This document shows positions 13,204-34,564 of a stretch of 41,390 bases of DNA, one piece after another. The translations under genes were made by a program, and so were the position numbers. Within the stretch, counting starts at the first letter, position 1, and every line of letters begins with the position of its first letter. The notes under the pieces were generated by a model. It was not told the DNA's origin, ran no database searches, and saw only the letters and a list, made by a program, of their open reading frames with translations. This DNA is from a virus. The DNA is taken from positions 1 to 41,390 of the IMG/VR virus record IMGVR_UViG_3300025585_001077; one strand, written 5' to 3'.

Positions 13204-13991
13204 TCGGCTCGTTCACTCTGGTAAAGAATGAGGCCCGCTGGCTTGGAGCCCACCTGGCCTCCTGGCTGCCGGTCCTAGATCAGTTGGTGTTCTTCGACGG
13301 CAACTCAGAGGACGGTACACAGAACCTCATCAAGCAGTTCCAGCGGTTCCACCCCGACGGTAAGAAAATCATCCTCCTCGAGGACAAGGACCCCAAGGAC
13401 CTCCAGGATGATTATGTGCGGATCTTTAACGAGTGCCTGCACACCCTAGAAACGGATGTAGCCATCTTCACCCACCCTGACATGATCTGCGCCGACCCCG
13501 GCAACCTGCGGGAGTTCGACGGGATTTCGGCCACGGTCCAGATGGAATCCTTCGCCGGGAATCCTGGCGGGAAGGTCTACAAAATCAACGGTCGGGCTGA
13601 GCGGTGGAAGAACATCTACCGGCTGAGAAACCCGGACCTTGGTCTTCACTACTTCGGCCACTACGGGGCGGCGAACGAGGATTGCTACTTCTCAGCCATC
13701 ACCGGGGATAAGCACGATTTCTACGGCCCCGTCTTTGAAGCGTACCCCTACAGTGTCGAGCATACGACTTGCAAGGTCCTCCACTACTCGGATGTCAGGA
13801 CCATTGAGAGAAGGCTGGACCGGATGGTGAAGTGCCTGATTAACCAGGGTGCCACGCCCGAGGAAGCGTTTGAGCAGGCGTCCACCCACCCGCGGGTGAC
13901 GCTCAAGAATGGCGGCGGCTTTTCGTTTGCCCTGTCTGACTACCACCCCATCTTCAAGACCTGGGAGGACTCTCTGTGCGTAAAGTCCTAG
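13200..13991 (+). CDS. Glycosyltransferase family 2-like protein
   Basis: 263 residues from GTG 13200 (GTGA overlap). FTLVKNEARWL at the N-terminus, FFDGNSEDGT and FTHPDM replace the nucleotide-sugar binding strand and the DxD-like region in GT2-like enzymes that begin with V/L-x-N-E. It is likely to transfer a sugar within the same cluster. Acceptor and donor are not predictable. Confidence 0.72.
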   Translation: MIGSFTLVKNEARWLGAHLASWLPVLDQLVFFDGNSEDGTQNLIKQFQRFHPDGKKIILLEDKDPKDLQDDYVRIFNECLHTLETDVAIFTHPDMICADPGNLREFDGISATVQMESFAGNPGGKVYKINGRAERWKNIYRLRNPDLGLHYFGHYGAANEDCYFSAITGDKHDFYGPVFEAYPYSVEHTTCKVLHYSDVRTIERRLDRMVKCLINQGATPEEAFEQASTHPRVTLKNGGGFSFALSDYHPIFKTWEDSLCVKS

Positions 13992-14851
13992 TCCCCGGTG
14001 GTGCTGGTTTTCTCGGGAAACATCTCGTCTACCAACTCAAGGACCGGGGGTATCGGGTTTTCGTGGCGGATCGGGAGACGGATCTCAACCATGTCGAGCG
14101 GCCGGATGTCGTGATTAATCTGGCTGGTTTTGTTGGGGGAATCGAGTTCAACCGCAGCCGCCCAGTAGACCTGTTCCTCCAGAACTTCATGCCTGGGATG
14201 AAGCTCCTGGAGTTCGCCAAGCACTGGAAGTCAAAGTTCATCCAGATCGGATCGGTCTGTGAGTACCCCAAACTGACCCAGGTCCCCTTCCTTGAGGATC
14301 ACCTTTGGAACGGATACCCGGAGGAAACCAACGCCCCCTACGGCATCGCCAAGCGGTCCTTGGGCGTCCTGGGTAATGCGTACGCAAACCAGTACGGGTT
14401 GGATTACACCCACATCATCTTGAGCAACCTCTACGGGCCCGGGGATGACTTCTCTGACTCGGGTCATGTGATCCCCGGCATGATTCGCAAGTTCTCAGAC
14501 GCTAAAGACTCGGTGACTTTATGGGGGACCGGGAAAGCGACTCGTGAGTTCCTCTATGTCGAGGACGCCGCCGACGGGATCATCTCCATGATGGAGAGGT
14601 ACACCGGCACCGACCCCGTAAACCTAGGCTCGGGAGAGGAAATCTACATTTCCAATCTGGCGTGGAAGATCGCCCGCCTCATGGGCTACTCCGGGGAAAT
14701 CCGTTGGGACCACGAAAAGCCAAACGGTCAGCCCCGCCGCGCCGTGGATACCTCAAAAGCCTCCGCTTACGGATGGTGCGCCAACACATCCCTAGATTCT
14801 GGACTGTCGAAGACTATCAAGTCGTTCAAGGAGTCACTTGCTAATGCCTGA
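13976..14851 (+). CDS. GDP-4-keto-6-deoxymannose epimerase/reductase-like SDR (GDP-fucose synthase / ColC-like)
   Basis: 291 residues. The NADP-binding GGAGFLG is at 8-14. The GDP-fucose synthase active set is present: S93 and C95 in GSVCEYPK, Y122 and K126 in PYGIAK, and H164 in GHVIPGM, with spacings matching the E. coli enzyme within one residue. GVGGI-type GFVGGIEFN, NLYGPGDDF and WGTGKATREFLYVED also agree. Such enzymes epimerise and reduce GDP-4-keto sugars. Its substrate could be made by the GMD at 30950, with or without the PLP enzyme at 32333. Confidence 0.82.
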   Translation: MRKVLVPGGAGFLGKHLVYQLKDRGYRVFVADRETDLNHVERPDVVINLAGFVGGIEFNRSRPVDLFLQNFMPGMKLLEFAKHWKSKFIQIGSVCEYPKLTQVPFLEDHLWNGYPEETNAPYGIAKRSLGVLGNAYANQYGLDYTHIILSNLYGPGDDFSDSGHVIPGMIRKFSDAKDSVTLWGTGKATREFLYVEDAADGIISMMERYTGTDPVNLGSGEEIYISNLAWKIARLMGYSGEIRWDHEKPNGQPRRAVDTSKASAYGWCANTSLDSGLSKTIKSFKESLANA

Positions 14852-18790: not shown

Positions 18791-21594
18791 TTAAGCTCCT
18801 CCTCCTGGCGTCTCTCGCCTTTGGGCAGGCTGGTTTTGAGACCGTCGGCCAGTTCTCTGGCTTGAACGATACTGACAGCCCCGGGACCCTGACCACGCAG
18901 GCACAGGACGCCCTCAATGTCGAGACAAACCTAGCCGGGACGGCGATCATCAAGAGAAAAGGTTTCTCCAGGCTTGCGTCTCTGACCTACTCCACCGCCC
19001 CGGTCACTGGTTCTCACTCTTTCATTGACCTCAACGGAAATCGCCAGGATATCGTCTGCCAGGATCGGTACTGCTTCAAGTCCACCAACCAGGGGACTTT
19101 CCAGGTCTTTTTGTCTACCGCTGGTGGATCTGGGAATGTCCCCACCCGCTGGTCCTTCGTGGATATCGGGGGATATCTCTACGGTGCCAACGACTCCCGC
19201 GACCCCATCATGGAGTACGACGGCACCACCCGCAGAAGCCCGGCTACCATGCCCGCAGGCTCCATTCTTGAATTGACGACAGATCGCCTAGCCGTCACTG
19301 ATACCACGGCTGACCCCAACACTGTCTATTACTCCCAGAAAGGTCTTTACACCAATTTCACGACCGGCCTTGATTCGGAGGACCCCTACACCGACGTCAT
19401 TGGCACCCCCGGAGAACGAAATACTGGGCTCAAGCACTCCCAGGGTGTTCTCTACATCTTCAAGCAGACCTCTATTACTTCGTGCATTTTGGGCGACCAG
19501 TACAGTTCTAGATGCTCGCCTATCTCCAACACCATCGGCACCAACGACCCGGCCTCGATCATCGAGACCCCGCAGGGGATTTTCTTCCGTGGTCAGGATA
19601 GGGGATATTGGCGGCTGGACGACTCGGGGCTGACTCTCATATCCCGCGAAATCTCAAACCTAGTGCAGTCCCAGACGGCTGGATCTCAGCAGTCCAACAC
19701 CCAGACCTCTCAGAGCGATTGGTCCGCCGCCACGCAAAATCCGTCTGGTTCGTGGGATTACACCACCAATTCCGGCTCCGTCTTCTCGACGACTTTCACC
19801 TTTGTAGACACCTCGTCGAATGACTTCGCGGCGGGAACGCTCTCCAATGTGTCCGTGACGGACAACATCGGCGGGATTTCTCTTTCCTCCGTGACCTGGC
19901 GGGATGATTTCGATGACGGCTCTTTTGCCGTCGGACAGGTGACTTGGACTACTACTGGCTGGTCTATGGGCTCCGGGCAGATGGCGACTAATGCCACCGT
20001 CAACGCCGCCACTGCGACACAGATCACCATCTCCTCAGGTTCGTGGCAGGTGGAATACAAATTCCAGCAAGGCGGCACTCCAATCCTTGATTTCTGCAAC
20101 GGCTCTGGGGCGCTGTGCGTAGACTTCCGCTTTATCTCTAAGGGAAACGGTGATTTCTACTCCCTCAGGCTCAAGGGGACTGGTTCAAACTCCACCCAGG
20201 GGCTCCAACTGGTCAAGAATGTCTCCGGGACGGAAACGGTCTTGGCTGCCGCTCCGGTTACTCAGGCGGATAACTCGTGGAAGACCTACCAGGTGACTCG
20301 GGTTGGAGATGCAATCCACGCCTACCAGAGTGATGTCTTCATCTCATCGGCAACCGACTCGGCAATTTCCGGTGGTCAAACTTTCCTGAACATTGTCGGA
20401 AACCAGGACTTTTCCTCTCAGTTCATCCGGGGATTGTCAGTCTACCGCTACAACTCCCCTGGAAGGTTTGTCTCTCGGACTTTCACTTCCGCCTTCAACT
20501 CCCCGGTGTGGGGGACGCTCTCCTCCACCATGACCGTCAGCCCGGAGACGAACATAGCTTTCTACACCGAGGTCTCAAACGACGGTTCGGCATGGGATTC
20601 CCTGGTGACGACTTCCGACACGCTCAAGATCGGCTCCGCTTCAAAGAAATACATCCGATATACGGCAGACCTCACCTCCACGAGTAGCACAAAAACCCCT
20701 GTTGGTTTGGCCTTCGGGTTGTTGGGGGCGGCTACGGGTCAACTGACAACGCAGTGCATCTCCCCGGGGTCGGCGGTCACTTCCTGGGGGATTGTCTCTT
20801 GCGCCTTCACCGCGACCGGGAACCCGACGATTGGCATTGAGATTGCGACGGGGACGAGTTGCGGGACGCTGACTAACCCCTATGTGTCCCTGACGAATAA
20901 CCAAACGATCACGGTGGACACAGCCGCTGCGATGAACCTTCGCTTCTCCTCGCTCATGACCTCGGCCACCGAACAGACCCAGATTGACTCCTGCTCGGTC
21001 TACTGGAACAACGGTGCCCCTGCTCCCCCGGTGTGGGGAGTTTTCGACTCGATCAGGAACGCCGTCTACTGGGCATCGTCCATCAACAACTCCACGACTA
21101 ATAACCGCTTCCTGAAATACGACCTTGCCCAGAAGCAGTGGTTCCCGTTTGACCTCGCCGTCACTGCTCCAAAGAGAATCGGCACCGCCCTCTATTTCGG
21201 CTCCTCTACGGGAGGGTACTGGAACCTTTACGGCGGGGTGGATAACGACAACGGCTCCGCCATCAACGCTTACTGGAAGTCTAGGGACTTCAGCGGCTCT
21301 GACCCCTTCGTAGAAAAGAATCTAAATCGGATATCGGTGGTGGTCAGAAACCAGGGCTCTGGGACGCTGACGACGACCTACACGACCTCCGACAACAGGA
21401 GCGGGTCCTACTCCATCAATCAGAGTACGACCTCCGGGGTGGCGTATGTGCGGGCAAATTACGCCCTACCGCTGCTTAGCCCCTTTCAGTTCTTCAATGT
21501 CAAGTTTGGCAACAACTCAGGCTCACCGTTTGAAGTGAACGGATTCCGGCTGGATTGGTTTGCACAGCCGTGGAAGGCAAACACAACTCCCTAG
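18787..21594 (+). CDS. Tail nozzle / tubular-tail-protein-B-like virion protein with signal-like N-terminus
   Basis: 935 residues from GTG 18787 in a GTGA overlap. Residues 1-14 (MIKLLLLASLAFGQ) are signal-peptide-like. Then TTQAQDALNVETNLAGTAI and KRKGFSRL match the start of podovirus nozzle proteins (a 'Q-A-x-D-A-x-N-V ... R-x-G' pattern). The remainder is Ser/Thr/Gly-rich beta-structure with several Cys. A tail-spike-like carbohydrate-binding segment in the middle is possible. Virion location is inferred from position. Confidence 0.75.
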   Translation: MIKLLLLASLAFGQAGFETVGQFSGLNDTDSPGTLTTQAQDALNVETNLAGTAIIKRKGFSRLASLTYSTAPVTGSHSFIDLNGNRQDIVCQDRYCFKSTNQGTFQVFLSTAGGSGNVPTRWSFVDIGGYLYGANDSRDPIMEYDGTTRRSPATMPAGSILELTTDRLAVTDTTADPNTVYYSQKGLYTNFTTGLDSEDPYTDVIGTPGERNTGLKHSQGVLYIFKQTSITSCILGDQYSSRCSPISNTIGTNDPASIIETPQGIFFRGQDRGYWRLDDSGLTLISREISNLVQSQTAGSQQSNTQTSQSDWSAATQNPSGSWDYTTNSGSVFSTTFTFVDTSSNDFAAGTLSNVSVTDNIGGISLSSVTWRDDFDDGSFAVGQVTWTTTGWSMGSGQMATNATVNAATATQITISSGSWQVEYKFQQGGTPILDFCNGSGALCVDFRFISKGNGDFYSLRLKGTGSNSTQGLQLVKNVSGTETVLAAAPVTQADNSWKTYQVTRVGDAIHAYQSDVFISSATDSAISGGQTFLNIVGNQDFSSQFIRGLSVYRYNSPGRFVSRTFTSAFNSPVWGTLSSTMTVSPETNIAFYTEVSNDGSAWDSLVTTSDTLKIGSASKKYIRYTADLTSTSSTKTPVGLAFGLLGAATGQLTTQCISPGSAVTSWGIVSCAFTATGNPTIGIEIATGTSCGTLTNPYVSLTNNQTITVDTAAAMNLRFSSLMTSATEQTQIDSCSVYWNNGAPAPPVWGVFDSIRNAVYWASSINNSTTNNRFLKYDLAQKQWFPFDLAVTAPKRIGTALYFGSSTGGYWNLYGGVDNDNGSAINAYWKSRDFSGSDPFVEKNLNRISVVVRNQGSGTLTTTYTTSDNRSGSYSINQSTTSGVAYVRANYALPLLSPFQFFNVKFGNNSGSPFEVNGFRLDWFAQPWKANTTP

Positions 21595-21603
21595 GAGAAA
21601 TTT

Positions 21604-22248
21604 ATGGATCAGATCAGTCAGCAGTTTCAAGACGCGCTCGGACGGGCTCCCTCTCAAGCTGAGATGGATTTCTTCTCTAAGGCGATTGGTGCCGGGGAGT
21701 TGTCGGCCTATGAGTTGGGACAGGTCCTACAGGGCCACCCCGAAGCCCAGGCAACCAGGCTCAAGAACTACGGCTCGCAGTACGAGCAGATGCTGGGAGC
21801 CTCCGACCAGAGAATCATGAACCAGGGGATGAAACAGGCCCTTGGGGACTTTGCTGGAGCCGGGCGTCTTGGCTCCTCCGGTCTTGCGTCGGCATACGCC
21901 AATGTCGGGCAGAACCTCGCCATGCAGCGACAGAACGCCCTTGCAAACTTCTACGGGCAGGGACTGGGGAATCTCCAGTCCCAGTACCAGAACCGTGGTG
22001 ATTCCGCCATGAACCGGGCCTACGGCCTGCGGGATGAGGCCAGACAGTGGGCGCGGGAAGACCAGATGTACTACCGCCAGAAGAACGACTACCAGGATAT
22101 GTTCCGTCAGCAGCAGAACGCCAACCTCCGGGGGCAGCTGATTGGCGGGGGTATGGGGATTCTTGCCGGTGCCGCTGGCGGCGCGGCGGGCGGGATGTTC
22201 GGCATGGGCGGAATGTTCGGCAAGATGCCGGTTGCGCCTAAGGGGTAA
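21604..22248 (+). CDS. Putative internal virion / DNA ejection protein
   Basis: 214 residues with an AGGAGAAATTT site. Gln/Asn-rich helices (residues 1-170) and a C-terminal Gly/Ala/Met-rich hydrophobic stretch (IGGGMGILAGAAGGAAGG) suit a small ejection protein that leaves the capsid and inserts into membranes, as in P22 gp7/gp20-type proteins. Not identified by a defining motif. Confidence 0.6.
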   Translation: MDQISQQFQDALGRAPSQAEMDFFSKAIGAGELSAYELGQVLQGHPEAQATRLKNYGSQYEQMLGASDQRIMNQGMKQALGDFAGAGRLGSSGLASAYANVGQNLAMQRQNALANFYGQGLGNLQSQYQNRGDSAMNRAYGLRDEARQWAREDQMYYRQKNDYQDMFRQQQNANLRGQLIGGGMGILAGAAGGAAGGMFGMGGMFGKMPVAPKG

Positions 22249-22250
22249 CT

Positions 22251-23297
22251 ATGAACTTCCAACCTCCATCCTGGCACCGTCCGGAAGATTACAACTACAT
22301 CCCGAAATCCATTGACGATATGTTCAACGCCTTCTACAGGGCGCAGGCGAACTCCCGTCAAGCGGCGCAGTTTGAACAGAACCAGCAGCTAACGGGCTTG
22401 CAAATGGCTAACGCCCGCCAGCAGAGCGCGGCCCAGCAGGTGGAGAATACGCTGAAATTCGGTGGCGTCTCACCGGAACAGATGATGGCTCCAGGCGTTC
22501 TCCAAAGAGCCCAGCAGCCCGCCCAAATGGGGAATATGGGACCGAACTACGGGATCGCCCAGCCCGACCAGGACCCTGCGGTGAATCAGTGGCGAGAACT
22601 TCTGTCACGGCACAAGGCCAGCCGCGACCAGGCAGCCGAGTCTGGGAAACTTGCGCTAGATGAAAAGCGGGCCAGCATCGGCAAACTCAACGCAGAGGCT
22701 GACGAGAAACGGGCGATTGCGGCTGGCGGTGGTCTTGGGCCGTCCGACAGGGCCAAGATCGAGGGGCAGATCATGGACGACTACATGAAGTCAAAGACCT
22801 TCGCCAACCTGGCAGCGGCTAAGAGCGGGCTTCGGGATCTCGCCTCCATTCAGGCAAACAAGACCGGAGCGGCGGATATCGCCGCCATCTACTCCTTCGT
22901 CAAGACGATGGACGACAACGCCGTCAAAGAAGGAGAAATCGCGCTGGCCCAAAGTGCTTTGCCCGGACTTGATAAGGTCAAGATCATCTACGACAACCTT
23001 AAGAGCGGCAACAAGCTGACGCCGGAACTCAAGAAGGAACTCTTGATGGTGGCAAAGGGGATGTACGAATCGAAACTGCGGAGCGCAGACGAGTACCGCG
23101 CACCGTTTGTCTCCCGCGCCAATCAATACAAGATTGACCCGAATATCGCCGTCCCGCGCCTCGCCATCCCGGACGATGAGTTTAACCTTATGGGGGGTGG
23201 GCAAGAGAGGACGCTTGAAGCCATCCGCGCCGATGTCGCCTCCGGGAAGATCAGCCGCGAACAGGGTAAAGCAGAGTTGAAAGCCGGGGGGTTCTAA
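22251..23297 (+). CDS. Putative internal virion protein, coiled-coil
   Basis: 348 residues, Gln/Ala/Glu-rich and helical, with a long heptad-like stretch from about residue 115 to 150 (KASRDQAAESGKLALDEKRA). It stands between two other ejection-type genes. The last base of its stop is the A of the next ATG. No recognised catalytic motif. Confidence 0.6.
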   Translation: MNFQPPSWHRPEDYNYIPKSIDDMFNAFYRAQANSRQAAQFEQNQQLTGLQMANARQQSAAQQVENTLKFGGVSPEQMMAPGVLQRAQQPAQMGNMGPNYGIAQPDQDPAVNQWRELLSRHKASRDQAAESGKLALDEKRASIGKLNAEADEKRAIAAGGGLGPSDRAKIEGQIMDDYMKSKTFANLAAAKSGLRDLASIQANKTGAADIAAIYSFVKTMDDNAVKEGEIALAQSALPGLDKVKIIYDNLKSGNKLTPELKKELLMVAKGMYESKLRSADEYRAPFVSRANQYKIDPNIAVPRLAIPDDEFNLMGGGQERTLEAIRADVASGKISREQGKAELKAGGF

Positions 23298-24805
23298 TGG
23301 CCCGCGACAGATACGACGATCTTTTAGACGGGAAGATGGAACCCGCGAAAGCGCAGGCGCGGGATAGGTTTGATGACTTGCTAGACGGAAAGGACCCGAC
23401 GCCGACGGATAGGCCGTTTGACCCGGCCCAGCTTAATCCAGTCGGGAACCTTGGCTTAGTCAAATTCCTTGACGCTACTGAGAAGTCCGGAGTGGTTCAG
23501 GGGGTTGGCCGCGGACTTATCATGGACAAGCCCCAAAGCAAGTCTGAGATGGTTGGTGCGGCTATCCCTTCCATTCTTGGTTTTGAGATGGCTGGTCCGG
23601 TCGGCGGGGCGGCGGCAGAAGCCGCCAGGCAGACCGCGATTACGCATTTCTCAAAAGAGCCAAGGGGCGTGGCTGGACCGATGTCTCAGGTGGCGGCTCA
23701 GTATTTCATTCCTAAGGGTGTGGAGAAAGCCGCGCCCTATGTAGCCGCTGGCACTCGCTATCTTGGCGGGAAAGTCGTTGACGCCGCAGAGGGCGCACTG
23801 CAATACGGCGCAAAGAACCTTGGCGGTGTTCCCGAGTGGGCCATCCAGAATGTTAACCGCGCCGGCAAGTTCATCGGGGCTGGTCCAGAAGTGGGGGATG
23901 CGATAGCCGCCAAAGCTCGTGGCGCTATCAATACCGCCGTCACTGGGCTAAAGAACGCCTACGCTCCTCTCGTCAAGGAGGGAGTCGCGGAGGCTGGCGG
24001 CAAAACCTTCAACCTCCAAGAAAGGCTTGGGCAGCGAGTCCTTGAAATCGCAGATGAGCATGGGCTAATGAACACTCCCGGACTTAGAAGCAGCCCTGGC
24101 AATAGCACTTTCTGGAAATTCGCCGGACAGGTGGACGGTTTGCAGAACGCATCAGCAGAACAGGTCTACGCATTTCAGAAACAGTTGAACGGTCTTGCCG
24201 CTCAGCATCGAGGTACGCCTCTCGGAGTTGCCTTCGGGAAACTCCAGGGCGAAGTTAGAACGCTCCTTGGCCAAGAGTTAGAGAAAGTCGCGCAAGGCAA
24301 CGCCTCGTATGCTGCCGGTAAGGCTTTGGAGGATGAATCCTCCCGCCTCGTCAACTCTAACGACCTCATCAACTATGTGAACAGGGCCTACAAAAACCCG
24401 CTGTCAACTGGGACGAAAGAGACACTGGAGAGCGTAGGGCAGCAGGTCCCTGAAGTGGCGGATGCGCTCGGTGACGCGGTTGGCTATCAAGCAGGCCAGG
24501 CGTTCACGCCTGTCGTCCGGAGCCTCCCGCAGACTGGGATGGGGGCCGGGATCGGGTATGTTGCTGGAAAGGCGGCAGGATCTATTCTAATCAATCCTCT
24601 AGCACTTCCTGGGATGATTGCGGGAGCGGCGTCAGTTTCACCCAGAGCCTATTATCACGGCCTTATGGGGGCGCAGGCTGCTCGTGGGCTTATTCCACAG
24701 GTTGGGGATATGGCCGCAAGCGTAGCCCCGGCTTTGGCGGCTGGCGCTGTCGCCCAGAGCCCACTACAGCGGTTCTACCGAGTTTCCCCGGCCCCGGCAC
24801 GATGA
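23297..24805 (+). CDS. Putative large ejection / internal virion protein with an N-terminal tandem motif
   Basis: 502 residues. Two 12-residue copies, ARDRYDDLLDGK and ARDRFDDLLDGK, open the protein; 10 of 12 codons differ between them although 11 of 12 residues are the same. The rest is helical with Gly/Ala-rich hydrophobic patches near residues 95-110 and 410-460 that could cross a membrane. Likely part of the ejectosome. The last 31 bp are antisense to the minus-strand gene at 24775. Confidence 0.6.
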   Translation: MARDRYDDLLDGKMEPAKAQARDRFDDLLDGKDPTPTDRPFDPAQLNPVGNLGLVKFLDATEKSGVVQGVGRGLIMDKPQSKSEMVGAAIPSILGFEMAGPVGGAAAEAARQTAITHFSKEPRGVAGPMSQVAAQYFIPKGVEKAAPYVAAGTRYLGGKVVDAAEGALQYGAKNLGGVPEWAIQNVNRAGKFIGAGPEVGDAIAAKARGAINTAVTGLKNAYAPLVKEGVAEAGGKTFNLQERLGQRVLEIADEHGLMNTPGLRSSPGNSTFWKFAGQVDGLQNASAEQVYAFQKQLNGLAAQHRGTPLGVAFGKLQGEVRTLLGQELEKVAQGNASYAAGKALEDESSRLVNSNDLINYVNRAYKNPLSTGTKETLESVGQQVPEVADALGDAVGYQAGQAFTPVVRSLPQTGMGAGIGYVAGKAAGSILINPLALPGMIAGAASVSPRAYYHGLMGAQAARGLIPQVGDMAASVAPALAAGAVAQSPLQRFYRVSPAPAR

Positions 24806-24930
24806 GAACGCTCCTTATCAGTCATGGCGTCCTCGTAGGCACACCAACGCCGGAACAGATAGTAGGCAATGAAAATAATCGTGCTTGCTAGTAACTTGTT
24901 TCCCAAAACCGTTGTAGTTAGTTCGCCCAT
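24775..24930 (-). CDS. 51-residue single-span membrane protein, second gene of a minus-strand operon
   Basis: Begins MGELTTTVLGN, then a hydrophobic helix (about residues 13-26: LLASTIIFIAYYLF), a basic RRW junction and a charged, hydrophilic tail. The ATG at 24930 lies inside the upstream gene's last codons (13-bp overlap), implying coupled translation. The 3' end lies antisense to the end of the 502-residue ejection protein gene. A lysis accessory or superinfection-exclusion role are possibilities only. Confidence 0.55.
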   Translation of the reverse strand: MGELTTTVLGNKLLASTIIFIAYYLFRRWCAYEDAMTDKERSHRAGAGETR

Positions 24931-25073
24931 TTCTTCAGGATCGGATAAATGAAAATGGCACTCCCAATGGCGATGAAAAACGAAGCCGTCCCGTCGTCAT
25001 GCTGGAATGTGGCACGGCAGAGGGAAAAGGCGAAGACGAAGAATGCCACCCGCAGCCCAGCCTCTGCCGCCAT
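24918..25073 (-). CDS. 51-residue two-span membrane protein, first gene of a minus-strand operon
   Basis: From ATG 25073, preceded by GGGAGGGGTGGGG. Two hydrophobic segments, LRVAFFVFAFSLC and ASFFIAIGSAIFIYPIL, are joined by a short polar loop (QHDDG), with a KKWAN end: a holin-like shape. An in-frame TTG at 25124 lies in the promoter and is not needed. The promoter TTGACG-N16-TACAAT lies just upstream. Holin is a guess; it could also protect the host membrane from a second phage. Confidence 0.6.
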   Translation of the reverse strand: MAAEAGLRVAFFVFAFSLCRATFQHDDGTASFFIAIGSAIFIYPILKKWAN

Positions 25074-25089
25074 TTTCCCCACCCCTCCC

Positions 25090-25117
25090 ATTGTAGCCCA
25101 AATCCTCATACCGTCAA
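25090..25117 (-). promoter_or_regulatory. Sigma-70-type promoter for the minus-strand membrane-protein operon
   Basis: Read on the minus strand: -35 TTGACG (25117-25112), 16-bp spacer, -10 TACAAT (25095-25090). The predicted start is about 25083, giving a leader of about 10 nt before ATG 25073. Confidence 0.72.
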
Positions 25118-25126
25118 GGCCCAATC

Positions 25127-28120
25127 TTGCTTAGTTTACTTCTAGGTCTTGTAGTCTTTGCCCACTCCCAGGGGGTCAAGCAGAGAGTAGACCGCCTGGA
25201 GGTTCTGGTCGAAGAACTCCGGGGCGGGCGTCCCACCACCACCTCTTTTGAGAATAAGAGGGGTTCGATCACCTTCCTGACCTCGGAATCGGGGATTGAA
25301 TGGGCGGATGGCACCCGTTCTACAACGGCGGTTTCCTCCATCTCCTCATTAGCCGGTGTGGTGGATACCGGGAAGTTGGGGACCGATGCGGTGACGGCGG
25401 TTAAAGTCATCTCCGGGGCGATTGAGACATCAAAACTGGCGGACGGTGCCGTCACCTTCCAGAAGATCACAGACGCCGCCGCCCAGACCTCTAAACTTGG
25501 TTCTGATTCAGTCATCTCCGCAAAGATCCGTAGCGGAGCCGTCGAAACCTCCAAGTTGGCTGACGGCTCAGTCACCGAGCAGAAGGTGTCCGATTCCGCT
25601 ATCCAAACCGCGAAACTCGGCAACGATGCGGTGAGTGCGGCTAAGATTCTGGCCTCAGACCTGAGTTGGACGAAGATGACCTCGGGCCAGCTTCACTACG
25701 ACTCAGTTAACAACAACCTTTGGAGTTGGACGAGTGCCGTTACCTCGCCCTACCTTCACCAAACCTGCATTGGACGCGGGAATGTCTGCAACGGAAACGA
25801 CACCGTAGCCCTAGGTGGTGGGAATAACTGTAAAGGGACTGGCTCCGTCTGCCTTGGTTGGAATAATAGCGTTGGAACCGTCGGCGGGGACTATTACGGC
25901 TTTGCCGCCGGGACCGGGAACACTTGCAGCGGCTTCTACTCGTCTTGCCTCGGGACCAATAACTCAAACGCCGTGACCTCGGGGTTAGCCGCTGGCGAGA
26001 ATATCACCATCGTCGGAAACTACAACCACGGCATCGGCTACAACCTGTCAATTCCCTCTGGCTCTGGTGGGCTAGGGACCTTGGAGTATTCGTTTGTCGG
26101 CGGGAGGAGGGCGAGGGTTAGGCGCACTTCCGCCTGGACCTGGAACCTCACCGCAAACGATGTCTACAAAGACGATTACGGATCTTTCTGGTACACCTTC
26201 CATGCTGATGCAGGGGGAGGTTTGGCTATCGAGGTGGGGAACTCCACGACCACGATCACCTCCAATAGCGCGGTCTTTCCCGGCTCTGCTACTGCCTCCT
26301 CCTTTTGGGGGGATGGAGCCCATTTAACCAATATCCCTGCGGCGGCCCTAGCTGCCGGTTCCGTCGAAACCGCAAAACTGGCGGCTGATGCGGTGATCGC
26401 CGCGAAGATTCTTAGCGGTGCTGTTGAAACCTCCAAACTAGCCGACGGCGCGGTTACGGCTCAAAAGCTGGCTGATTCTTCCGTCCAGACCGCCAAGATC
26501 GCCGCCTACTCTGTTGAGACTGGGAAGCTCTACCCCGGAGGGAACGAGGGTCAGGTGGCTAAGATCAGAAGCGGAAAGGTGGTCTGGGACGACGACACCA
26601 GCGGAGGGACCATCGCTGATGGATCTGTTCAGACCGCCAAGCTCGCTAGTGACTCGGTGATAGCGGCAAAGATCATCTCCGGGGCAGTCGAAACCTCAAA
26701 GTTAGCCGACGGAGCCGTGACCGCGCAGAAGATCGCGTCTTCCGCAGTCCAAACTGCAAAGCTGGGGACCGATAGCGTGACGGTGACCGCCATTCTAGAC
26801 GGCTCCATCCAGACTTCCAAGCTGGGCGCGGACGCCGTGAATACCGCCGCCATCCTTGAAGGTGCCGTAGACACCTCTAAGCTCGCTGACGGAGTGGTCA
26901 CCGCTCAGAAGGTGGCGGACTCCGCGATCCAGACCGCAAAGCTCGTGGATGGCGCGGTCCAGACCATCAAGCTAGGCAATGACGCCGTAATAGCGGCGAA
27001 GATTCAGTCCGGGGCGGTGCAGACATCCAAGATCGCTGACGGTTCTATCACGGCTCAAAAGATCGCCGCCGCCGCTGTCCAGTCAGCCAAGCTCGGGACC
27101 GATTCAGTCCTGTCAGCCTCCATCCTGGCCGGGGCCGTGGACACCAAGAAGATCGCTTCTTACTCGGTTGACACCGACAAGATCGCCGGGACCGGAGCAA
27201 CCTCGGGACAGGTCATCTCCTACAACGGCTCCAAGGTTGTGTGGTCGAATCAGTCGGCCACCATCGCCGACGGGTCAATCCAGACGGCCAAGCTGGCTAC
27301 AGACTCGGTTATCGCAATCAAGATTCTCTCCGGGGCTGTAGAGACTTCAAAGCTGGCAGATGGAGCGATCACTGCTCAGAAAATTGCGGCGGCGGCTGTT
27401 CAGACTGCCAAGCTCGGAACGGATGCTGTCCTAGCCGCTTCCATCTCCGCAGGCGCGGTTGATACCAACAAGATTGGACAGGGCGCAGTCCAAACCCAGA
27501 AGATTCTAGCCGACGCTGTGACCGCCGCGAAGATCATCTCCAACGCCGTTGAGACTTCCAAGATCATTGATGGCGCGATCACGGCGCAGAAGATTGCGGA
27601 CAACGCCGTACAGACGGCAAAGATTCTGGCAGACGCTATCACAACGGTCAAAATTCAGGCGCAGGCCGTCACTAGCCCGAAGCTGGCGAACAGCCTCAAC
27701 CTAGTTACCCCAACATCGAGCGGTCTTCATTCTTTTTCAAACACCACATCATCCCAGGCCGTCATATACGGATTCAGTGCTAGAGGCGGGGCTGGCAACG
27801 CTAATGGGAGTTTTAAGCTAGGGCTTACCTCTGGATTTGAGACGCGCTTTGACCTGAACGGTGCTACTGGCAGCATGGAAATAAACAATATGCAGGACGC
27901 GGCGGGTTCGGCTATAACGCTCTGCACTCGCGGCGACACCGCAAACAAGAAGTGTCCGTTGAAGGTTGACCAAAACGGAGGTCTGAGTAGCGCCTATTTC
28001 GGAGAAGGCACGACCATAATTTACCGCTGTTCCGTGGCAGGGGCGCTCAGAGCCGGTCAGTTAACTTCTGTTTCGTCTGATTGCGGAACAGCGGTTGATA
28101 CCGGGATGAGGACGCCATGA
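25127..28120 (+). CDS. Long tail fibre with decapeptide repeats and a YadA-like head insert
   Basis: 997 residues from TTG 25127 (AAGG nearby). Residues 1-16 (MLSLLLGLVVFAHSQG) look signal-like. About fifty 10-residue units of type A-V-x-T-x-K-L-x-x-D/G run from about 83 to 185 and about 405 to 860. Between them lies a Gly/Asn/Cys-rich region (CIGRGNVCNGND, ALGGGNNCKGTGSVCLGWNN) like the left-handed roll of YadA heads. Two longer GQV...KVVW segments punctuate the repeats. Expected to be a trimeric shaft with receptor-binding C-terminus. Confidence 0.8.
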   Translation: MLSLLLGLVVFAHSQGVKQRVDRLEVLVEELRGGRPTTTSFENKRGSITFLTSESGIEWADGTRSTTAVSSISSLAGVVDTGKLGTDAVTAVKVISGAIETSKLADGAVTFQKITDAAAQTSKLGSDSVISAKIRSGAVETSKLADGSVTEQKVSDSAIQTAKLGNDAVSAAKILASDLSWTKMTSGQLHYDSVNNNLWSWTSAVTSPYLHQTCIGRGNVCNGNDTVALGGGNNCKGTGSVCLGWNNSVGTVGGDYYGFAAGTGNTCSGFYSSCLGTNNSNAVTSGLAAGENITIVGNYNHGIGYNLSIPSGSGGLGTLEYSFVGGRRARVRRTSAWTWNLTANDVYKDDYGSFWYTFHADAGGGLAIEVGNSTTTITSNSAVFPGSATASSFWGDGAHLTNIPAAALAAGSVETAKLAADAVIAAKILSGAVETSKLADGAVTAQKLADSSVQTAKIAAYSVETGKLYPGGNEGQVAKIRSGKVVWDDDTSGGTIADGSVQTAKLASDSVIAAKIISGAVETSKLADGAVTAQKIASSAVQTAKLGTDSVTVTAILDGSIQTSKLGADAVNTAAILEGAVDTSKLADGVVTAQKVADSAIQTAKLVDGAVQTIKLGNDAVIAAKIQSGAVQTSKIADGSITAQKIAAAAVQSAKLGTDSVLSASILAGAVDTKKIASYSVDTDKIAGTGATSGQVISYNGSKVVWSNQSATIADGSIQTAKLATDSVIAIKILSGAVETSKLADGAITAQKIAAAAVQTAKLGTDAVLAASISAGAVDTNKIGQGAVQTQKILADAVTAAKIISNAVETSKIIDGAITAQKIADNAVQTAKILADAITTVKIQAQAVTSPKLANSLNLVTPTSSGLHSFSNTTSSQAVIYGFSARGGAGNANGSFKLGLTSGFETRFDLNGATGSMEINNMQDAAGSAITLCTRGDTANKKCPLKVDQNGGLSSAYFGEGTTIIYRCSVAGALRAGQLTSVSSDCGTAVDTGMRTP
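25374..27714 (+). repeat. Decapeptide-coding (30-bp period) repeat array inside the fibre gene
   Basis: About fifty units of 30 bp encode A/S-V/I-x-T-x-K-L/I-x-x-D/G. The array is interrupted by the head-like insert and two GQV...KVVW elements. DNA copies differ widely in third positions while the protein pattern stays constant. Confidence 0.8.
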
Positions 28121-28491
28121 CCCGATCCATCGGCATCGCAATACTCCTGGCTGGGCTGGCCTCGCTGATGTTCTGCGGGTGTTCAGCGCCCTGCAAACGC
28201 CTGGGGGACGCCAGAATCAACGGGGCTAGGATTATCACCTCCGTCTGCCCAAGAGAGGCCCTGCCCAGGGTCTGCCGCCGTCCTTGGCAGAACTCGAACG
28301 CCTGCGCCTGGGTGAAGAAGCACCGCAACGGCAGAATTAAGACTTGCTGGAAATTCCTGGCTAATGACTTCGACGGGGCAAAAGCTGATCCGCACGAAAC
28401 CGCCCATTGCGGCGGGGCTGATGAAGGTGAGGCGCGTTGCGCCGATTGGCCCGGGACTAAAGCCCCTAAGGGACAGGAGTGCAGAAAATGA
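28117..28491 (+). CDS. Small Cys-rich exported protein, possibly a lipoprotein
   Basis: 124 residues, ATG in an ATGA overlap with the fibre stop. The N-terminus MTRSIGIAILLAGLASLMFCGCS is a signal sequence followed directly by Cys residues, though it lacks an ideal L-A-G-C lipobox. About ten Cys are scattered through the rest, suggesting disulphides. Being first in the lysis region it might be an outer-membrane spanin-type component, which is uncertain. Confidence 0.55.
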   Translation: MTRSIGIAILLAGLASLMFCGCSAPCKRLGDARINGARIITSVCPREALPRVCRRPWQNSNACAWVKKHRNGRIKTCWKFLANDFDGAKADPHETAHCGGADEGEARCADWPGTKAPKGQECRK

Positions 28492-28946
28492 CCCAAATAA
28501 AACTGACTTACAACATGATCGCAATGGTGGATGAATCCGACCGTGAGGCGGTGTCCCGCTACAATTGGCAGGCGGTTCGACGGGGCCGGAAATGGTACGC
28601 CAGGGCCCGCATTCCCAATCCTGTCCGGTATGTCTACCTTCACCGTTTCCTGACCTCTGCGCCTGCCGGGAAAAGTGTGGACCACATAAACGGAGATACG
28701 CTGGACAACCGGAGATCCAATCTAAGGGTTTGCACCCAGGGACAGAACGCCGCCAATATGCGCCGCCTTAACGGCCACAAGGGAGCATCCTGGGACAAGA
28801 GGTCCGGGCGGTGGAGGGCCTACATCGTCAAAGACGGGCGGCAGAGACACCTCGGATACTTTGACGGAATGACGGAGGCTCTGCTGGCCTACAACCGGGC
28901 CGCACTTTCAACATTCGGGGAGTTCGCCCACTTAAATGCTGTCTAG
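28488..28946 (+). CDS. HNH endonuclease with AP2-type DNA-binding C-terminus
   Basis: 152 residues from ATG 28488 with GGAG 8 bp upstream (GTG 28479 is the alternative). The HNH core VDHINGDTLDNRRSNLR is followed by NAANMRR and an AP2-like half (GASWDKRSGRWRAYI, HLGYFDGMTEALLAYNRAA). Free-standing homing-type nuclease, inserted at the 3' end of the preceding gene. Related to the enzymes at 31906 and 34565. Confidence 0.88.
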   Translation: MTQIKLTYNMIAMVDESDREAVSRYNWQAVRRGRKWYARARIPNPVRYVYLHRFLTSAPAGKSVDHINGDTLDNRRSNLRVCTQGQNAANMRRLNGHKGASWDKRSGRWRAYIVKDGRQRHLGYFDGMTEALLAYNRAALSTFGEFAHLNAV

Positions 28947-28979: not shown

Positions 28980-29186
28980 ATGGACGATGAACTGAGAGAG
29001 CGCATTTTCAGAATGGACGAGCGGACTCAGAACATGGACAAGAAGATGGACGAGCGCCATCAAGTGACCGAAAAGCGGTTAGACGCCCACGCCCACAAGA
29101 TCAGAGCCCTTGAGGAGTGGTGTTATTGGATTGGCGGTATCGGGGCGGCGGCTATCGGCTGGCTCAAGTTCGGGAACGGGAAATGA
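28980..29186 (+). CDS. XhlA-like membrane protein of the lysis region
   Basis: 68 residues: an N-terminal charged coiled coil (MDERTQNMDKKMDERHQ...) and a C-terminal hydrophobic span (YWIGGIGAAAIGWL). This layout is that of haemolysin XhlA, which works with holins on the cell membrane. The next gene is the putative endolysin. Confidence 0.62.
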   Translation: MDDELRERIFRMDERTQNMDKKMDERHQVTEKRLDAHAHKIRALEEWCYWIGGIGAAAIGWLKFGNGK

Positions 29187-29732
29187 ATGCTCCCTACATG
29201 GCTCCTGGGCCTGTTCCGGCGTGGAGTATCCATCTCAATCCCTCTCGGGTCCTTCTATAACTCCATGAGCAAAGATGAAATCCTCGCTAGGTTGGAGAAG
29301 GCGTCCGACGAAGCCGTCAAAGACTTTGAGCCAAAGGTGGATTATCAGGGTGAGATTGTCGAAACCTACTGCAACATCGGGGCCGATTTCATCTGCCGGG
29401 AGGTGTGGGGCTATAAGGGCTTCATGAACATGATGGCGAATCAGATTTACGACAGGATGCGGGGGGCCGTGGATTTCGCGCTAGTAGACCCAGAAGCAGC
29501 TCAAAGGCTGGCAAACGACGGGAGAATGGTCATTGCCGCCCAGAAAGGCGATGAGCATGGTCATGTGGCCGTCGTCATACCTGGGACGGTCGTCTACTCC
29601 GGGAAATGGCGGTGCAACGCGCCCAGGATCGCCAATGTCGGAAAGAGAAACGGGAAGATGGCGGCTAATTGGGCCTTCATCCAGAAGCCGGAATTTTACG
29701 CGCACATACCAGATGTCCAGGAGAAAGCATGA
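29187..29732 (+). CDS. Putative endolysin, papain-like (CHAP/NlpC-type) peptidase
   Basis: 181 residues. The active-site Cys appears in TYCNIGADFI (C62) at the start of a helix, and the His in EHGHVAVVIPG (H126), followed by a Trp/Asn-containing region (ANVGKRNG); this order fits a Cys-His peptidase or amidase that cuts peptidoglycan cross-links. It sits between an XhlA-like and a holin-like gene. The first 25 residues have a short hydrophobic run; an internal start at residue 27 is possible. Confidence 0.65.
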   Translation: MLPTWLLGLFRRGVSISIPLGSFYNSMSKDEILARLEKASDEAVKDFEPKVDYQGEIVETYCNIGADFICREVWGYKGFMNMMANQIYDRMRGAVDFALVDPEAAQRLANDGRMVIAAQKGDEHGHVAVVIPGTVVYSGKWRCNAPRIANVGKRNGKMAANWAFIQKPEFYAHIPDVQEKA

Positions 29733-29959
29733 ACAAGATCAAGGAGTTTCTATTCGGCAAGCTGGCGGGGCGCATCGTGGCCCGTGGTGCCGTCTCGCTG
29801 GCCGCCGTCATCGCTGGTCACTTGGCGGCTAACGGAGTACAGGTTGACCCGAACGAACTGAGCGCCTACCTGATTGCTGGGGCCAACATGGCCTACACCG
29901 CGATCAAGGAATGGCGGGACAAACACGCCGAGAAGGCGGCAGAGAGCAAGCCTGCCTAG
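29729..29959 (+). CDS. Holin-like small membrane-associated protein
   Basis: 76 residues, ATG 29729 in an ATGA overlap with AGGAG upstream. The KLAGRIVARGAVSLAAVIAGHL segment can form a membrane helix, followed by VQVDPNELSAYLIAGANMAY and a charged tail. Its place beside the endolysin supports a holin or lysis-regulator role. Confidence 0.6.
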   Translation: MNKIKEFLFGKLAGRIVARGAVSLAAVIAGHLAANGVQVDPNELSAYLIAGANMAYTAIKEWRDKHAEKAAESKPA

Positions 29960-30949: not shown

Positions 30950-31909
30950 ATGGGGAAGATCGCGCTCGTAACCGGGATTACTGGGCAAGACGGATCCTAC
31001 CTGGCAGAACTCCTCCTCCATAAGGGCTACGAGGTCCACGGCATCGTTCGTCGGTCCTCATCTCTCAACACCTCCCGCATAGATCACATCTTCGATAGGC
31101 TAAGACTCCACTACGGGGATATGACGGACGGGACCTCCATCACCCGGATTCTATCGTTAGTGCGGCCGGATGAGATTTACGCCCTCGGGGCGCAATCCCA
31201 TGTGATGGTGAGCTTTGAAAATCCTGAGTACACAGCACAGGTAGACGCCGTTGGGACGCTTAGACTGCTTGAGGCAATCAGGATTTTAGGTATACACCCT
31301 AAGGTCTACCAAGCCTCTACCTCTGAGATGTTCGGTATTGCCCCAAGCCCTCAGAACGAGGAGACGCCGCTTTTACCTGTAAGCCCTTACGGAGCGGCCA
31401 AGGTCTACGCCTACCACATCACCCGGACCTATCGGCAAGGGTATGGGATGTTCATTTCTAACGGGATTCTATTCAATCACGAGAGCAGCCGCAGGGGGGT
31501 GACTTTCGTTACCCGCAAGATCACCAGGGGCCTAGCCGCCATCAAGCGGGGTGAGCAGAAGGAACTCGTCCTCGGGAACCTTGACGCTTTGCGGGATTGG
31601 GGACACGCCCGGGATTTCGTGGAGGCCATGTGGCTGATGCTCCAGAGGGAAAAGCCGGATGATTATGTCATCGGCACCGGGGAGCAACACTCTGTCCGTG
31701 AGTTCGTCGAGGAAGCTGGTAAGTGTCTAGGCTTCTCTAATGTCTGGGATTTCGTGAGGTCAGACTCCCGCTACATGAGGCCCGCCGAAGTGCCTGACCT
31801 CTGCGCCGACTACCTCAAAGCCCGCCGCGAACTCGGCTGGAGCCCTCGTACCACTTTCAAAGAACTCGTCCGGGAGATGTGTGAAGCAGATATGGAGCGC
31901 AAATCATGA
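30950..31909 (+). CDS. gmd: GDP-mannose 4,6-dehydratase
   Basis: 319 residues, a full-length short-chain dehydratase/epimerase. Visible GMD features are [12 protein letters not shown] (9-20), [33 protein letters not shown], the STSEMFG active region (T124, S125, E126) and SPYGAAK (Y147, K151). It makes GDP-4-keto-6-deoxymannose from GDP-mannose, the branch point to fucose, rhamnose, perosamine and colitose. A TTGACG at 30913 might be a weak promoter element. Its stop overlaps the HNH start (ATGA). Confidence 0.95.
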
Positions 31910-32373
31910 AGCAGATTCCGCTTACGCAGGGTCAGTTTGCGATTGTTGATGATGAGGATTTTGAGGAGATGTCGTCCTATCGTTGGTATGCGGTGTGGTC
32001 GCCGCCGACAAAGAGCTTCTACGCGGAACGACACCTGCCGAGGCGGAAGAATTGGCAGGGGACAATAAAAATGCACCAACACCTTATGCGTCCGGCCGCC
32101 GGTCTTGTCGTAGACCACATCAACCACGACACACTGGACAACCGGCGCGGGAACCTAAGGCTATGCACCCGGGCACAAAACCAGGCTAACCGCCGAGGAG
32201 CGCAGGCGAATTCTAGAACGGGAATCCGTGGCGTTTGCTGGAGCAACCAGGCTAAGAAATGGATGGTGCGCGTCGGGCGGAAGTACATAGGAATATTTGA
32301 TCGCATTGATGCAGCTGCGGACGCCGCGATGGATGCGCGAAGAAAAATATACGGTGAGTTCTGCGGTGGGTAA
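31906..32373 (+). CDS. HNH endonuclease with AP2-type C-terminus, inserted in the sugar operon
   Basis: 155 residues. HNH core [17 protein letters not shown], then an AP2-like half ([32 protein letters not shown]). It starts in the ATGA overlap with gmd and overlaps the PLP enzyme gene by about 40 bp. Closest relatives in the window are at 28488 and 34565. Confidence 0.88.
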
Positions 32374-33520
32374 TATCGGGGTCGGGTATTTCAGAACCAC
32401 GGACAGGGCACGGGGGTACATAAAAAAAGTCCTCGATTCCGGGCGCGTCACCTACGGGCCATTCCACAGGAGATTCGAAAGCAAATTTGCCAGTCTACAC
32501 GATTCCAAATTTTCCGTGTTCGTAAACTCGGGAACATCGGCGCTTCATATCGCCCTCCAATCCCTGAAAGAGCGCCACGGATGGCGTGATGGCGACGAGG
32601 TGATAGTCCCGGCTCTCACCTTCGTGGCGACGATAAATATTGTCCTCCATAATCGGATGAAGCCGGTTTTATGTGATATCAAAAGAGATGACTTCGGTAT
32701 CAATCCCGACTTGCTGGAATCTTTAATCACAAAAAGGACTAAGGCAATTATCCCAGTGCATATCATGGGGATGCCATGCGACATGGATGGAGTGCTTTCT
32801 GCCGCACGGAGGCATAACCTCAAAATTATTGAGGATTCGTGCGAAACCGTCTTTGCAAAACACAATGGCCGCCCCGTCGGTTCGATGGGGGACATCGGTT
32901 GCTTTTCGTCGTACGCGGCGCATACCATCGTAACAGGCGTAGGCGGTCTAGCCGTCACCAGTGACCCCGATTTGGCTGTACGGCTCAGAAGCCTCGCAAA
33001 TCACGGCAGAGACGGAATCTACCTCAACATTGACGATGACGACGGCAAGACCGGCGCGGAGATGCGGGAGATTATCTCCAGGCGTTTTAGGTTCCTGTCC
33101 GTTGGTCACTCTTTCCGGGCTACAGAGTTTGAAGCGGCTCTGGGGCTTGCCGAGATTGAGGAAGCCAAAAAGAACATAGACGCCCGCCGCCTCAATGCCT
33201 TTTACCTCAGGGACCATCTAAGCGGGGTTGTGGGGTTCCAAGCCCTCTTGCCTGGGCGGGAATCAGTCCCCATGACCTTCCCCATCATCGCCAAAAACAA
33301 GCCCAGGATGGTGGAACACCTAGAAGCCAATGGCATCGAAACGCGGGACCTCCTACCTCTCACCCGCCAGCCGGTCTATAAGGGAATGTGGGACCCCAAA
33401 GACTACCCCGTAGCCGACTACATGAATAGACACGCCTTCTATGTGGGGTGCCACCCTGGTTTGAGCGTCAGGGATTTGGACCGGATTGTGAAGGCTGTTA
33501 AATCTTGTAATCAATTTTAA
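32333..33520 (+). CDS. DegT/DnrJ/EryC1-family PLP sugar enzyme with His in place of the catalytic Lys; candidate 3-dehydratase
   Basis: 395 residues from ATG 32333 (further ATGs at 32297 and 32309). Fold-type I features are FVNSGTSALHIAL, PALTFVAT, IEDSCE (PLP-binding D168) and GCFSSYAAHTIVTGVGGLAV. In sugar aminotransferases this last region is SFxxxKxxTTGEGG; here the Lys is H197. ColD and RfbH/E1 use such a His and remove the 3-OH group instead of transferring an amine. With gmd upstream, GDP-4-keto-3,6-dideoxymannose is the likely product, though aminotransferase ancestry leaves doubt. Confidence 0.82.
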   Translation: MREEKYTVSSAVGNIGVGYFRTTDRARGYIKKVLDSGRVTYGPFHRRFESKFASLHDSKFSVFVNSGTSALHIALQSLKERHGWRDGDEVIVPALTFVATINIVLHNRMKPVLCDIKRDDFGINPDLLESLITKRTKAIIPVHIMGMPCDMDGVLSAARRHNLKIIEDSCETVFAKHNGRPVGSMGDIGCFSSYAAHTIVTGVGGLAVTSDPDLAVRLRSLANHGRDGIYLNIDDDDGKTGAEMREIISRRFRFLSVGHSFRATEFEAALGLAEIEEAKKNIDARRLNAFYLRDHLSGVVGFQALLPGRESVPMTFPIIAKNKPRMVEHLEANGIETRDLLPLTRQPVYKGMWDPKDYPVADYMNRHAFYVGCHPGLSVRDLDRIVKAVKSCNQF

Positions 33521-34343
33521 GGATTGCGGCTTGCCGGTTTGCGGTAATGTGCTGATACGGCAGGGCGGATTTAGGGGAGGCCCATCCGTAAGTGTCCATA
33601 AGGGCAAATAGGTCTGGGGTTTGTTCCATAAACCTCGTGGCGGATGTGTGGCGAAGATCGTGGAATCTAACCCTGCCCACACCAGCCGCTCGCCAAGCCC
33701 TGGTCAGGTGGTAGTTCATCATGGACGCGCTAAACAGAAACACTCTCCCGGACTTACGAACTGGGCCTAGACAAGCGACAGCTTGCCTGTGTAAATGTAC
33801 AGACCGTCCTCGTTTTGATTTTGACTTATCGGGCGGGATGGTCAGGATGTTCCCGGTGATTTGTTGCCAGGTGAGTGAAAAAACCTCCTGGCGTCTGAGC
33901 CCGGTGTAGAGGGCAAGCGTACACGCCCGCCTGATATCTAAAGGCAGCCTGCGAAACACGCTTGCTAGTTCGTGATCGCTCAACGCCCTCCCGGCATGAA
34001 CTTGAGGAGGCGGCTCAACTCCTTTGAATGGATTTTCAGTCAGTATTTTCAAAGAGACAGCATAGTCGAACACTCCAGAGATGGCTACGAAGCGCCTCCG
34101 AACGGTGTTCTGAGCGAATTTCCTAGAGAGTAGATTCTTCCACCTGTCGGCGTCATCCGTGGTAAAATCTCCTAGACGGCGATCTTTGATAAACAAGCGG
34201 AACTCCTGGATAGCCCCCATCTCTGAGTACCGAATGGTTGATTCAGCCTTGTAGCCTCTGGCATGGTCTAGGTATCTGGGTTCAAACTCCGTCCACCTAG
34301 GCGTCAGTTTCTCGTCGAGGATTTTGACTATCGCGTATTTCAT
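33498..34343 (-). CDS. int: Tyrosine-recombinase integrase
   Basis: 281 residues from ATG 34343, which has GGGAGGT in front; an upstream in-frame ATG at 34373 lacks a site. The catalytic set is visible: R150 (TGLRRQE), H228 and R231 (FHDLRHTSA), Y263 (LPYQH), and W254 where many have His. An N-terminal SAM-like DNA-binding domain precedes it. It would integrate phage DNA at an attachment site, probably near by. Convergent with the PLP gene (23-bp overlap at the ends). Confidence 0.92.
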   Translation of the reverse strand: MKYAIVKILDEKLTPRWTEFEPRYLDHARGYKAESTIRYSEMGAIQEFRLFIKDRRLGDFTTDDADRWKNLLSRKFAQNTVRRRFVAISGVFDYAVSLKILTENPFKGVEPPPQVHAGRALSDHELASVFRRLPLDIRRACTLALYTGLRRQEVFSLTWQQITGNILTIPPDKSKSKRGRSVHLHRQAVACLGPVRKSGRVFLFSASMMNYHLTRAWRAAGVGRVRFHDLRHTSATRFMEQTPDLFALMDTYGWASPKSALPYQHITANRQAAILKIDYKI

Positions 34344-34365
34344 AGGGACCTCCCTGGCAGTATTA

Positions 34366-34383
34366 TTTCGCATTCCCGCGAAA
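34366..34383. repeat. Inverted repeat TTTCGC-N6-GCGAAA upstream of the integrase
   Basis: Perfect 6-bp arms with a central ATTCCC, 22 bp upstream of the integrase ATG. Possibly an operator or an excision-factor site. Confidence 0.4.
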
Positions 34384-34434: not shown

Positions 34435-34463
34435 TTGAGTTTTGCCGATTCGTCCGCTAGACT
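34435..34463 (+). promoter_or_regulatory. Candidate sigma-70-type promoter in the integrase intergenic region
   Basis: TTGAGT (34435-34440), 17-bp spacer, TAGACT (34458-34463). The -10 box is two bases from TATAAT. It would drive the rightward HNH/micro-gene/recombination block. Confidence 0.45.
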
Positions 34464-34474
34464 GTGTTTGTAGT

Positions 34475-34522
34475 TCCCACCTTAGACTAAAGGTCCTACT
34501 TGTTACGGGACTGGGGGTGGGA
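34475..34522 (+). other. Predicted 5'-leader stem upstream of the rightward operon
   Basis: TCCCACC (34475-34481) can pair with GGTGGGA (34516-34522), enclosing smaller GTCC/GGAC pairs. Together with the promoter above and the ATG at 34565, this gives a leader of about 95 nt that could be regulatory. The whole 34344-34564 gap otherwise shows only the inverted repeat and promoter noted. Confidence 0.3.
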
Positions 34523-34564
34523 GAAAGAGCCGAGATCAGCGGCTTAAAAAAAACGGAAATCAAA

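What the first reader, a model, noticed from the sequence alone, without database searches (positions are those of the whole stretch)
24775..25117. Hidden minus-strand operon of two 51-residue membrane proteins antisense to the virion module
A TTGACG-N16-TACAAT promoter faces left, followed by ATG 25073 and a purine-rich site, then two overlapping small genes with two and one membrane helices. All neighbours run rightward. The second gene is antisense to the end of the ejection-protein gene. This could express separately from the virion genes, for example a superinfection-exclusion or lysis-timing pair.
Basis: partly seen in the sequence, partly recalled or inferred. Interest (0 to 1): 0.72.

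Follow-up and report, generated by a model that had tools for sequence, protein, structure and literature searches.

The report
Leftward membrane-protein pair in phage
Between a phage's last tail-channel-type gene and its tail-fibre gene sits what looks like a real, oppositely directed mini-operon for two tiny membrane proteins, probably switched on separately from the virion genes and lying where phage P22 keeps its gene for shutting out rival phages; what the proteins do is untested.

Summary
In detail: two overlapping minus-strand frames (A ending 24918, B 24930-24775) fill the 321-bp gap between the rightward 502-aa gene and the tail-fibre gene, behind TTGACG-16-TACAAT. It is more than chance. 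A's codon usage matches this phage's genes (0 of 152 shadow ORFs score as high); B is weaker. No shuffle in 5000 gave a tandem pair of hydrophobic ORFs. One detail is wrong: with a normal start site the purine-rich GGAGG would lie upstream of the transcript. Instead an in-frame GTG (25082) sits 7 nt after the -10. The only two other strong promoters in the window (a divergent pair at 1939/1955, also TTGACG) have a start codon 6 nt after the -10, so A is probably read from a leaderless mRNA as 54 aa. The place matches P22, where leftward sieA follows ejection gene 16. Best reading: a small leftward moron making inner-membrane proteins apart from the virion operon, most likely superinfection exclusion (about 0.35); lysis modulation and a small hydrophobic toxin are rivals. 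Neither protein has a detectable relative except in two contigs 100% identical over the stretch, so conservation (dN/dS) could not be tested. Membership in SieA is not claimed.

The parts
25090..25117 (-). sigma70-like promoter TTGACG-N16-TACAAT; core GGCCTTGACG (25121-25112) shared with promoter +1955
   Evidence: one of only three sites of 10/12 or better in the window (1.5 expected); no transcript data
24918..25082 (-). ORF A, 54 aa from GTG 25082 (probable leaderless start) or 51 aa from ATG 25073; two-helix membrane hairpin
   Evidence: no family match
24775..24930 (-). ORF B, 51 aa, one membrane helix and a charged C-terminal tail; overlaps A by 13 nt (translational coupling inferred; no Shine-Dalgarno of its own)
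   Evidence: no family match
23297..24805 (+). 502-aa gene at the position of P22 gene 16 (last ejection protein); 3' end antisense to B
   Evidence: role inferred from gene order only, no similarity to P22 gp16
25127..28120 (+). 997-aa tail-fibre-like protein starting at TTG; its upstream region overlaps the leftward promoter
   Evidence: phrog_892, E 1.4e-76

Best explanation
A leftward moron-type transcription unit. Host sigma70 RNA polymerase starts at 25117-25090 and makes a leaderless message; ORF A is read from GTG 25082 (or ATG 25073) and ORF B by translational coupling across their 13-nt overlap. Both proteins insert into the inner membrane. Because the promoter is of the same TTGACG/leaderless class as the divergent promoters at 1939/1955 (probably a control region), it is probably active early or in the prophage, apart from the virion operon. 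Most likely function: superinfection exclusion at the inner membrane, by interference with DNA entry of like phages, as P22 SieA does from the same genomic position. Shown here: frames, codon bias, promoter class, position. Inferred: expression, membrane insertion, timing, function. My probabilities: real leftward genes 0.8 (A 0.85, B 0.7); exclusion function given real about 0.4.
For: Codon score of A like real genes and above all shadow ORFs. No tandem hydrophobic ORF pair in 5000 shuffles. All three strong promoters of the window use TTGACG and each is followed 6-7 nt after the -10 by ATG/GTG opening an ORF of 50 aa or more (116, 68, 54 aa); expected 0.018 per simulated sequence, never more than one in 600 simulations. 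GGCCTTGACG occurs only at two of these promoters (expected 0.15). Integrase present, so temperate life is plausible. P22: gene 16, then leftward sieA with its own promoter, then tailspike 9; [quoted passage not shown]
Against: No homologue of A or B in any collection searched, only two contigs 100% identical over the fetched stretch, so no test of selection. B has only marginal coding statistics, no better than the 61-aa plus-strand frame of the gap, and no ribosome-binding site. No leftward terminator next to B. SieA has 162-164 aa and three helices; A and B together have three helices but show no similarity to it. The 'ejection' role of the upstream gene is inferred from order only.
Confidence: 0.4

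Rival explanations
1. Lysis modulator: A is a very small class-II-holin-like hairpin (N-in, C-in by the positive-inside rule) and B a single-helix partner or anti-holin, expressed apart from the plus-strand lysis cassette to set lysis timing.
For: Two-helix hairpin in A and one helix in B; next to the late genes.
Against: A candidate holin/lysis cassette lies on the plus strand (28980-29959; XhlA-like below cut-off); 51-54 aa is short for a holin (own knowledge); opposite strand and a control-region-type promoter do not suit a late lysis gene.
Confidence: 0.15
2. Small hydrophobic toxin or other membrane-stress moron (addiction or host-modifying peptides) expressed from the prophage.
For: Sizes and hydrophobicity fit type I toxin-like peptides; its own promoter.
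Against: No antisense RNA or antitoxin gene identified; no inverted repeats and no Rfam match in the stretch; two coupled genes are unusual for type I toxins (own knowledge).
Confidence: 0.12
3. Regulatory antisense transcript: the promoter makes an antisense RNA over the end of the 502-aa gene, and the frames are incidental.
For: B overlaps the 3' end of that gene; B's coding signal is weak.
Against: Coding signal of A and the shuffle test; the leaderless start codon position; only 31 nt of B overlap the gene.
Confidence: 0.1
4. Chance: an ordinary gap with fortuitous ORFs and a chance promoter match.
For: One long ORF in the gap is common (80% of shuffles); 10/12 promoter matches are near expectation in number (3 against 1.5); another antisense stretch (25110-25260) also scores as coding in sliding windows.
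Against: Combined rarity of paired hydrophobic ORFs, gene-like codon usage of A, and start codon placement shared with two other promoters.
Confidence: 0.2

Closest known systems
Salmonella phage P22 sieA (immI region)
   Same: Leftward gene for an inner membrane protein directly after the last ejection gene (16) and before the tailspike gene, with its own promoter (PMC10883804)
   Different: One 162-164-aa protein with three helices there; two overlapping 51-54-aa frames with two and one helices here; no sequence similarity; no mnt/arc/ant genes in the 321-bp gap
Uncultured podovirus ctKR88 MW202524 (Manatee Spring)
   Same: Terminase about 30% identical; an unannotated leftward 42-aa ORF with one hydrophobic segment (22260-22132) overlaps the 3' end of its last late gene (20590-22179)
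   Different: There it lies at the end of a long leftward early operon; sequence unrelated; the ORF is not validated
Leaderless phage control transcripts (such as lambda cI from PRM, own knowledge) and the -10-adjacent ORFs of Deinococcus-Thermus (PMC12340547)
   Same: Start codon about 6-7 nt after the -10, no Shine-Dalgarno in the message
   Different: Transcription start not measured here; host unknown

Membership tests
P22 SieA superinfection-exclusion protein | Sequence similarity to a SieA type | tested here: not met
   No alignment of A or B to P22 SieA; no Pfam, PHROG or NCBIfam match. Other SieA types were not compared directly.
P22 SieA superinfection-exclusion protein | Leftward gene directly after the last ejection gene, before the tailspike/fibre gene | tested here: met
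   the ejection role of the upstream gene is inferred
P22 SieA superinfection-exclusion protein | Inner membrane protein with three helices in one chain of about 160 aa | tested here: not met
   Two chains with two and one predicted helices
P22 SieA superinfection-exclusion protein | Blocks DNA injection by related phages | not testable with these tools
   Needs a plating or DNA-entry assay
Class II holin | Two membrane helices, both ends cytoplasmic, about 65-95 aa, next to an endolysin gene | tested here: not met
   Hairpin present, but 51-54 aa and not next to an endolysin gene
Leaderless message | Start codon at the transcription start, about 6-7 nt after the -10 | tested here: inconclusive
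   Spacing met for all three strong promoters; the 5' end was not measured

The most novel reading that the evidence does not exclude
A new two-component exclusion system of minimal membrane peptides (54 and 51 aa) made from a leaderless, prophage-active message in the sieA position of an undescribed podovirus lineage, possibly co-controlled with the divergent promoters at 1939/1955 through the shared GGCCTTGACG element.
Probability: 0.2. Interest if true: 0.65.

Novelty: new variant of a known kind. Interest (0 to 1): 0.42.

Why it matters
Small leftward membrane genes in late-operon gaps are easily missed by annotation. If this pair excludes related phages it would extend the P22 sieA theme to a divergent lineage with much smaller proteins, and make position next to the ejection genes a guide for finding exclusion genes without homology.

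Tried and rejected
Conservation/dN/dS: eight viral-contig scans with A, B and neighbouring or virion proteins; the single-protein scans gave only two contigs (IMGVR 3300006030_000083 and 3300006875_000151), 100% identical over the stretch compared; two genome-contig scans found nothing. A terminase profile reached distant, mostly short contigs; a search of 12 records (nine of these and three annotated phages) for A found nothing. tblastn of A and B against phages at E 10: nothing. Comparing the late genes with ctKR88 and P22: no similarity. Foldseek of A: no match at E of 0.001 or less; small helical hairpins are uninformative. The search for B was started but not collected. Phage C75C1 has a leftward 61-aa gene after its large late gene, but without a hydrophobic helix. 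Rejected: GGAGG as the ribosome-binding site together with this promoter, because it lies upstream of the expected transcript start.

Full report
Observation. The window is a 41,390-base virus record. The two minus frames exist as described: A 25073-24918 and B 24930-24775, 51 aa each, overlapping by 13 nt, behind TTGACG-N16-TACAAT at 25117-25090. They fill the 321-bp gap between the rightward 502-aa gene (23297-24805) and the 997-aa tail-fibre gene (25127-28120; phrog_892). B overlaps the end of the former by 31 nt.

More than chance? A codon model trained on 30 genes of the window scores A at the median of real 50-codon chunks and above all 152 shadow ORFs of 40-90 aa (against the other-frames background; 1.3% of shadows against a mononucleotide one). 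B lies at the 5-12th percentile of real chunks and is exceeded by 4-20% of shadows. The best plus-strand frame of the gap, 61 aa, is also exceeded by only 4-6% of shadows, so codon usage alone does not decide B. Sliding windows also gave a high minus-strand score at 25110-25260, inside a shadow of the fibre gene, a warning about short windows. In 5000 dinucleotide shuffles, 80% held an ORF of 48 aa or more on either strand, 2% a tandem pair, none a tandem pair with both hydrophobic (threshold chosen after seeing the data). Single-sequence AlphaFold gives a helical hairpin for A and one helix for B, which any such sequence might.

Promoter and start. The -10 ends at 25090, so transcription would begin near 25083; GGAGG at 25088-25084 would lie upstream of the message. 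But a GTG in frame with A lies at 25082, 7 nt after the -10. In the whole window only three sites reach 10/12: +1955 TTGACG-17-TATAAT, -1939 TTGACG-17-TATAGT (a divergent pair) and this one; 1.5 are expected. The other two have ATG 1990 (116-aa ORF) and GTG 1904 (68-aa ORF) exactly 6 nt after the -10. A strong promoter followed 6-7 nt later by ATG/GTG opening an ORF of 50 aa or more is expected 0.018 times per simulated genome, and no simulation of 600 had more than one, against three here (the 6-7 nt window was set after seeing the three sites). GGCCTTGACG occurs only at +1955 and -25117 (expected 0.15). This is the best evidence that the promoter is real and that A starts as a leaderless message. 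Leaderless start with an adjacent -10 is described in Deinococcus-Thermus (PMC12340547); lambda cI is a known phage case (own knowledge).

Relatives. The single-protein scans returned only two contigs, 100% identical to the window over the stretch compared. There is no variation, hence no dN/dS. A and B match nothing in Pfam, PHROGs, NCBIfam or the phage collection beyond insignificant scores. The nearest annotated phages share only a terminase at about 30% (ctKR88, MW202524). In ctKR88 an unannotated leftward 42-aa ORF with one hydrophobic stretch also overlaps the 3' end of the last late gene, a suggestive but unvalidated parallel.

Comparison. In P22 the order is 7-20-16 rightward, then sieA leftward 23 nt after gene 16 with its own promoter, orf59a and mnt leftward, arc and ant, then tailspike 9. 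[quoted passage not shown] escape mutations lie in gp16 and gp20 (PMC10883804). The window has 214-, 348- and 502-aa genes, the leftward pair, then the fibre. The positions agree; sequences do not. It may work like sieA; it is not shown to be a member of that family.

Mechanism. Most likely: host polymerase makes a leaderless leftward message independently of the virion operon; A is translated from its 5' end, B by coupling; both sit in the inner membrane and, as the favoured but unproven role, hinder DNA entry of related phages. The lysis reading is weaker because a candidate lysis cassette lies on the plus strand (28980-29959; XhlA-like protein at E 0.0014 but below the Pfam cut-off).

Noticed in passing
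1698-2340: Divergent promoter pair (-1939 TTGACG-17-TATAGT; +1955 TTGACG-17-TATAAT), each with a start codon 6 nt after the -10: probable leaderless divergent control region; ATTAGGCC flanks the +1955 promoter on both sides, a possible operator. The leftward 68-aa product has a zinc-ribbon-like CxxC motif.
   Followed up: partly
33498-34373: Leftward tyrosine integrase (Pfam PF00589, E 5e-16): the phage is probably temperate.
   Followed up: partly
13976-14851 and 30950-31909: Two epimerase-type genes matching the same family (phrog_540), besides glycosyltransferases, methyltransferase-like and aminotransferase genes: a large surface-sugar gene load for a 41-kb phage.
   Followed up: no
12155-12700, 28479-28946, 31906-32373, 34442-35002: Four HNH or endonuclease VII type genes scattered through the genome (three match phrog_99).
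   Followed up: no
25400-28120: Tail-fibre gene made of many diverged repeats (about 70-75% identical DNA copies) of a 'SVQTAKLATDAV' type motif.
   Followed up: no
28117-28491: 124-aa ORF beginning with a lipoprotein-like signal (LASLMFCGCSAPC), possibly a spanin-type protein near the lysis genes; no family match.
   Followed up: no
L012:22132-22260: Unannotated leftward 42-aa hydrophobic ORF antisense to the end of the last late gene of ctKR88 (MW202524).
   Followed up: partly
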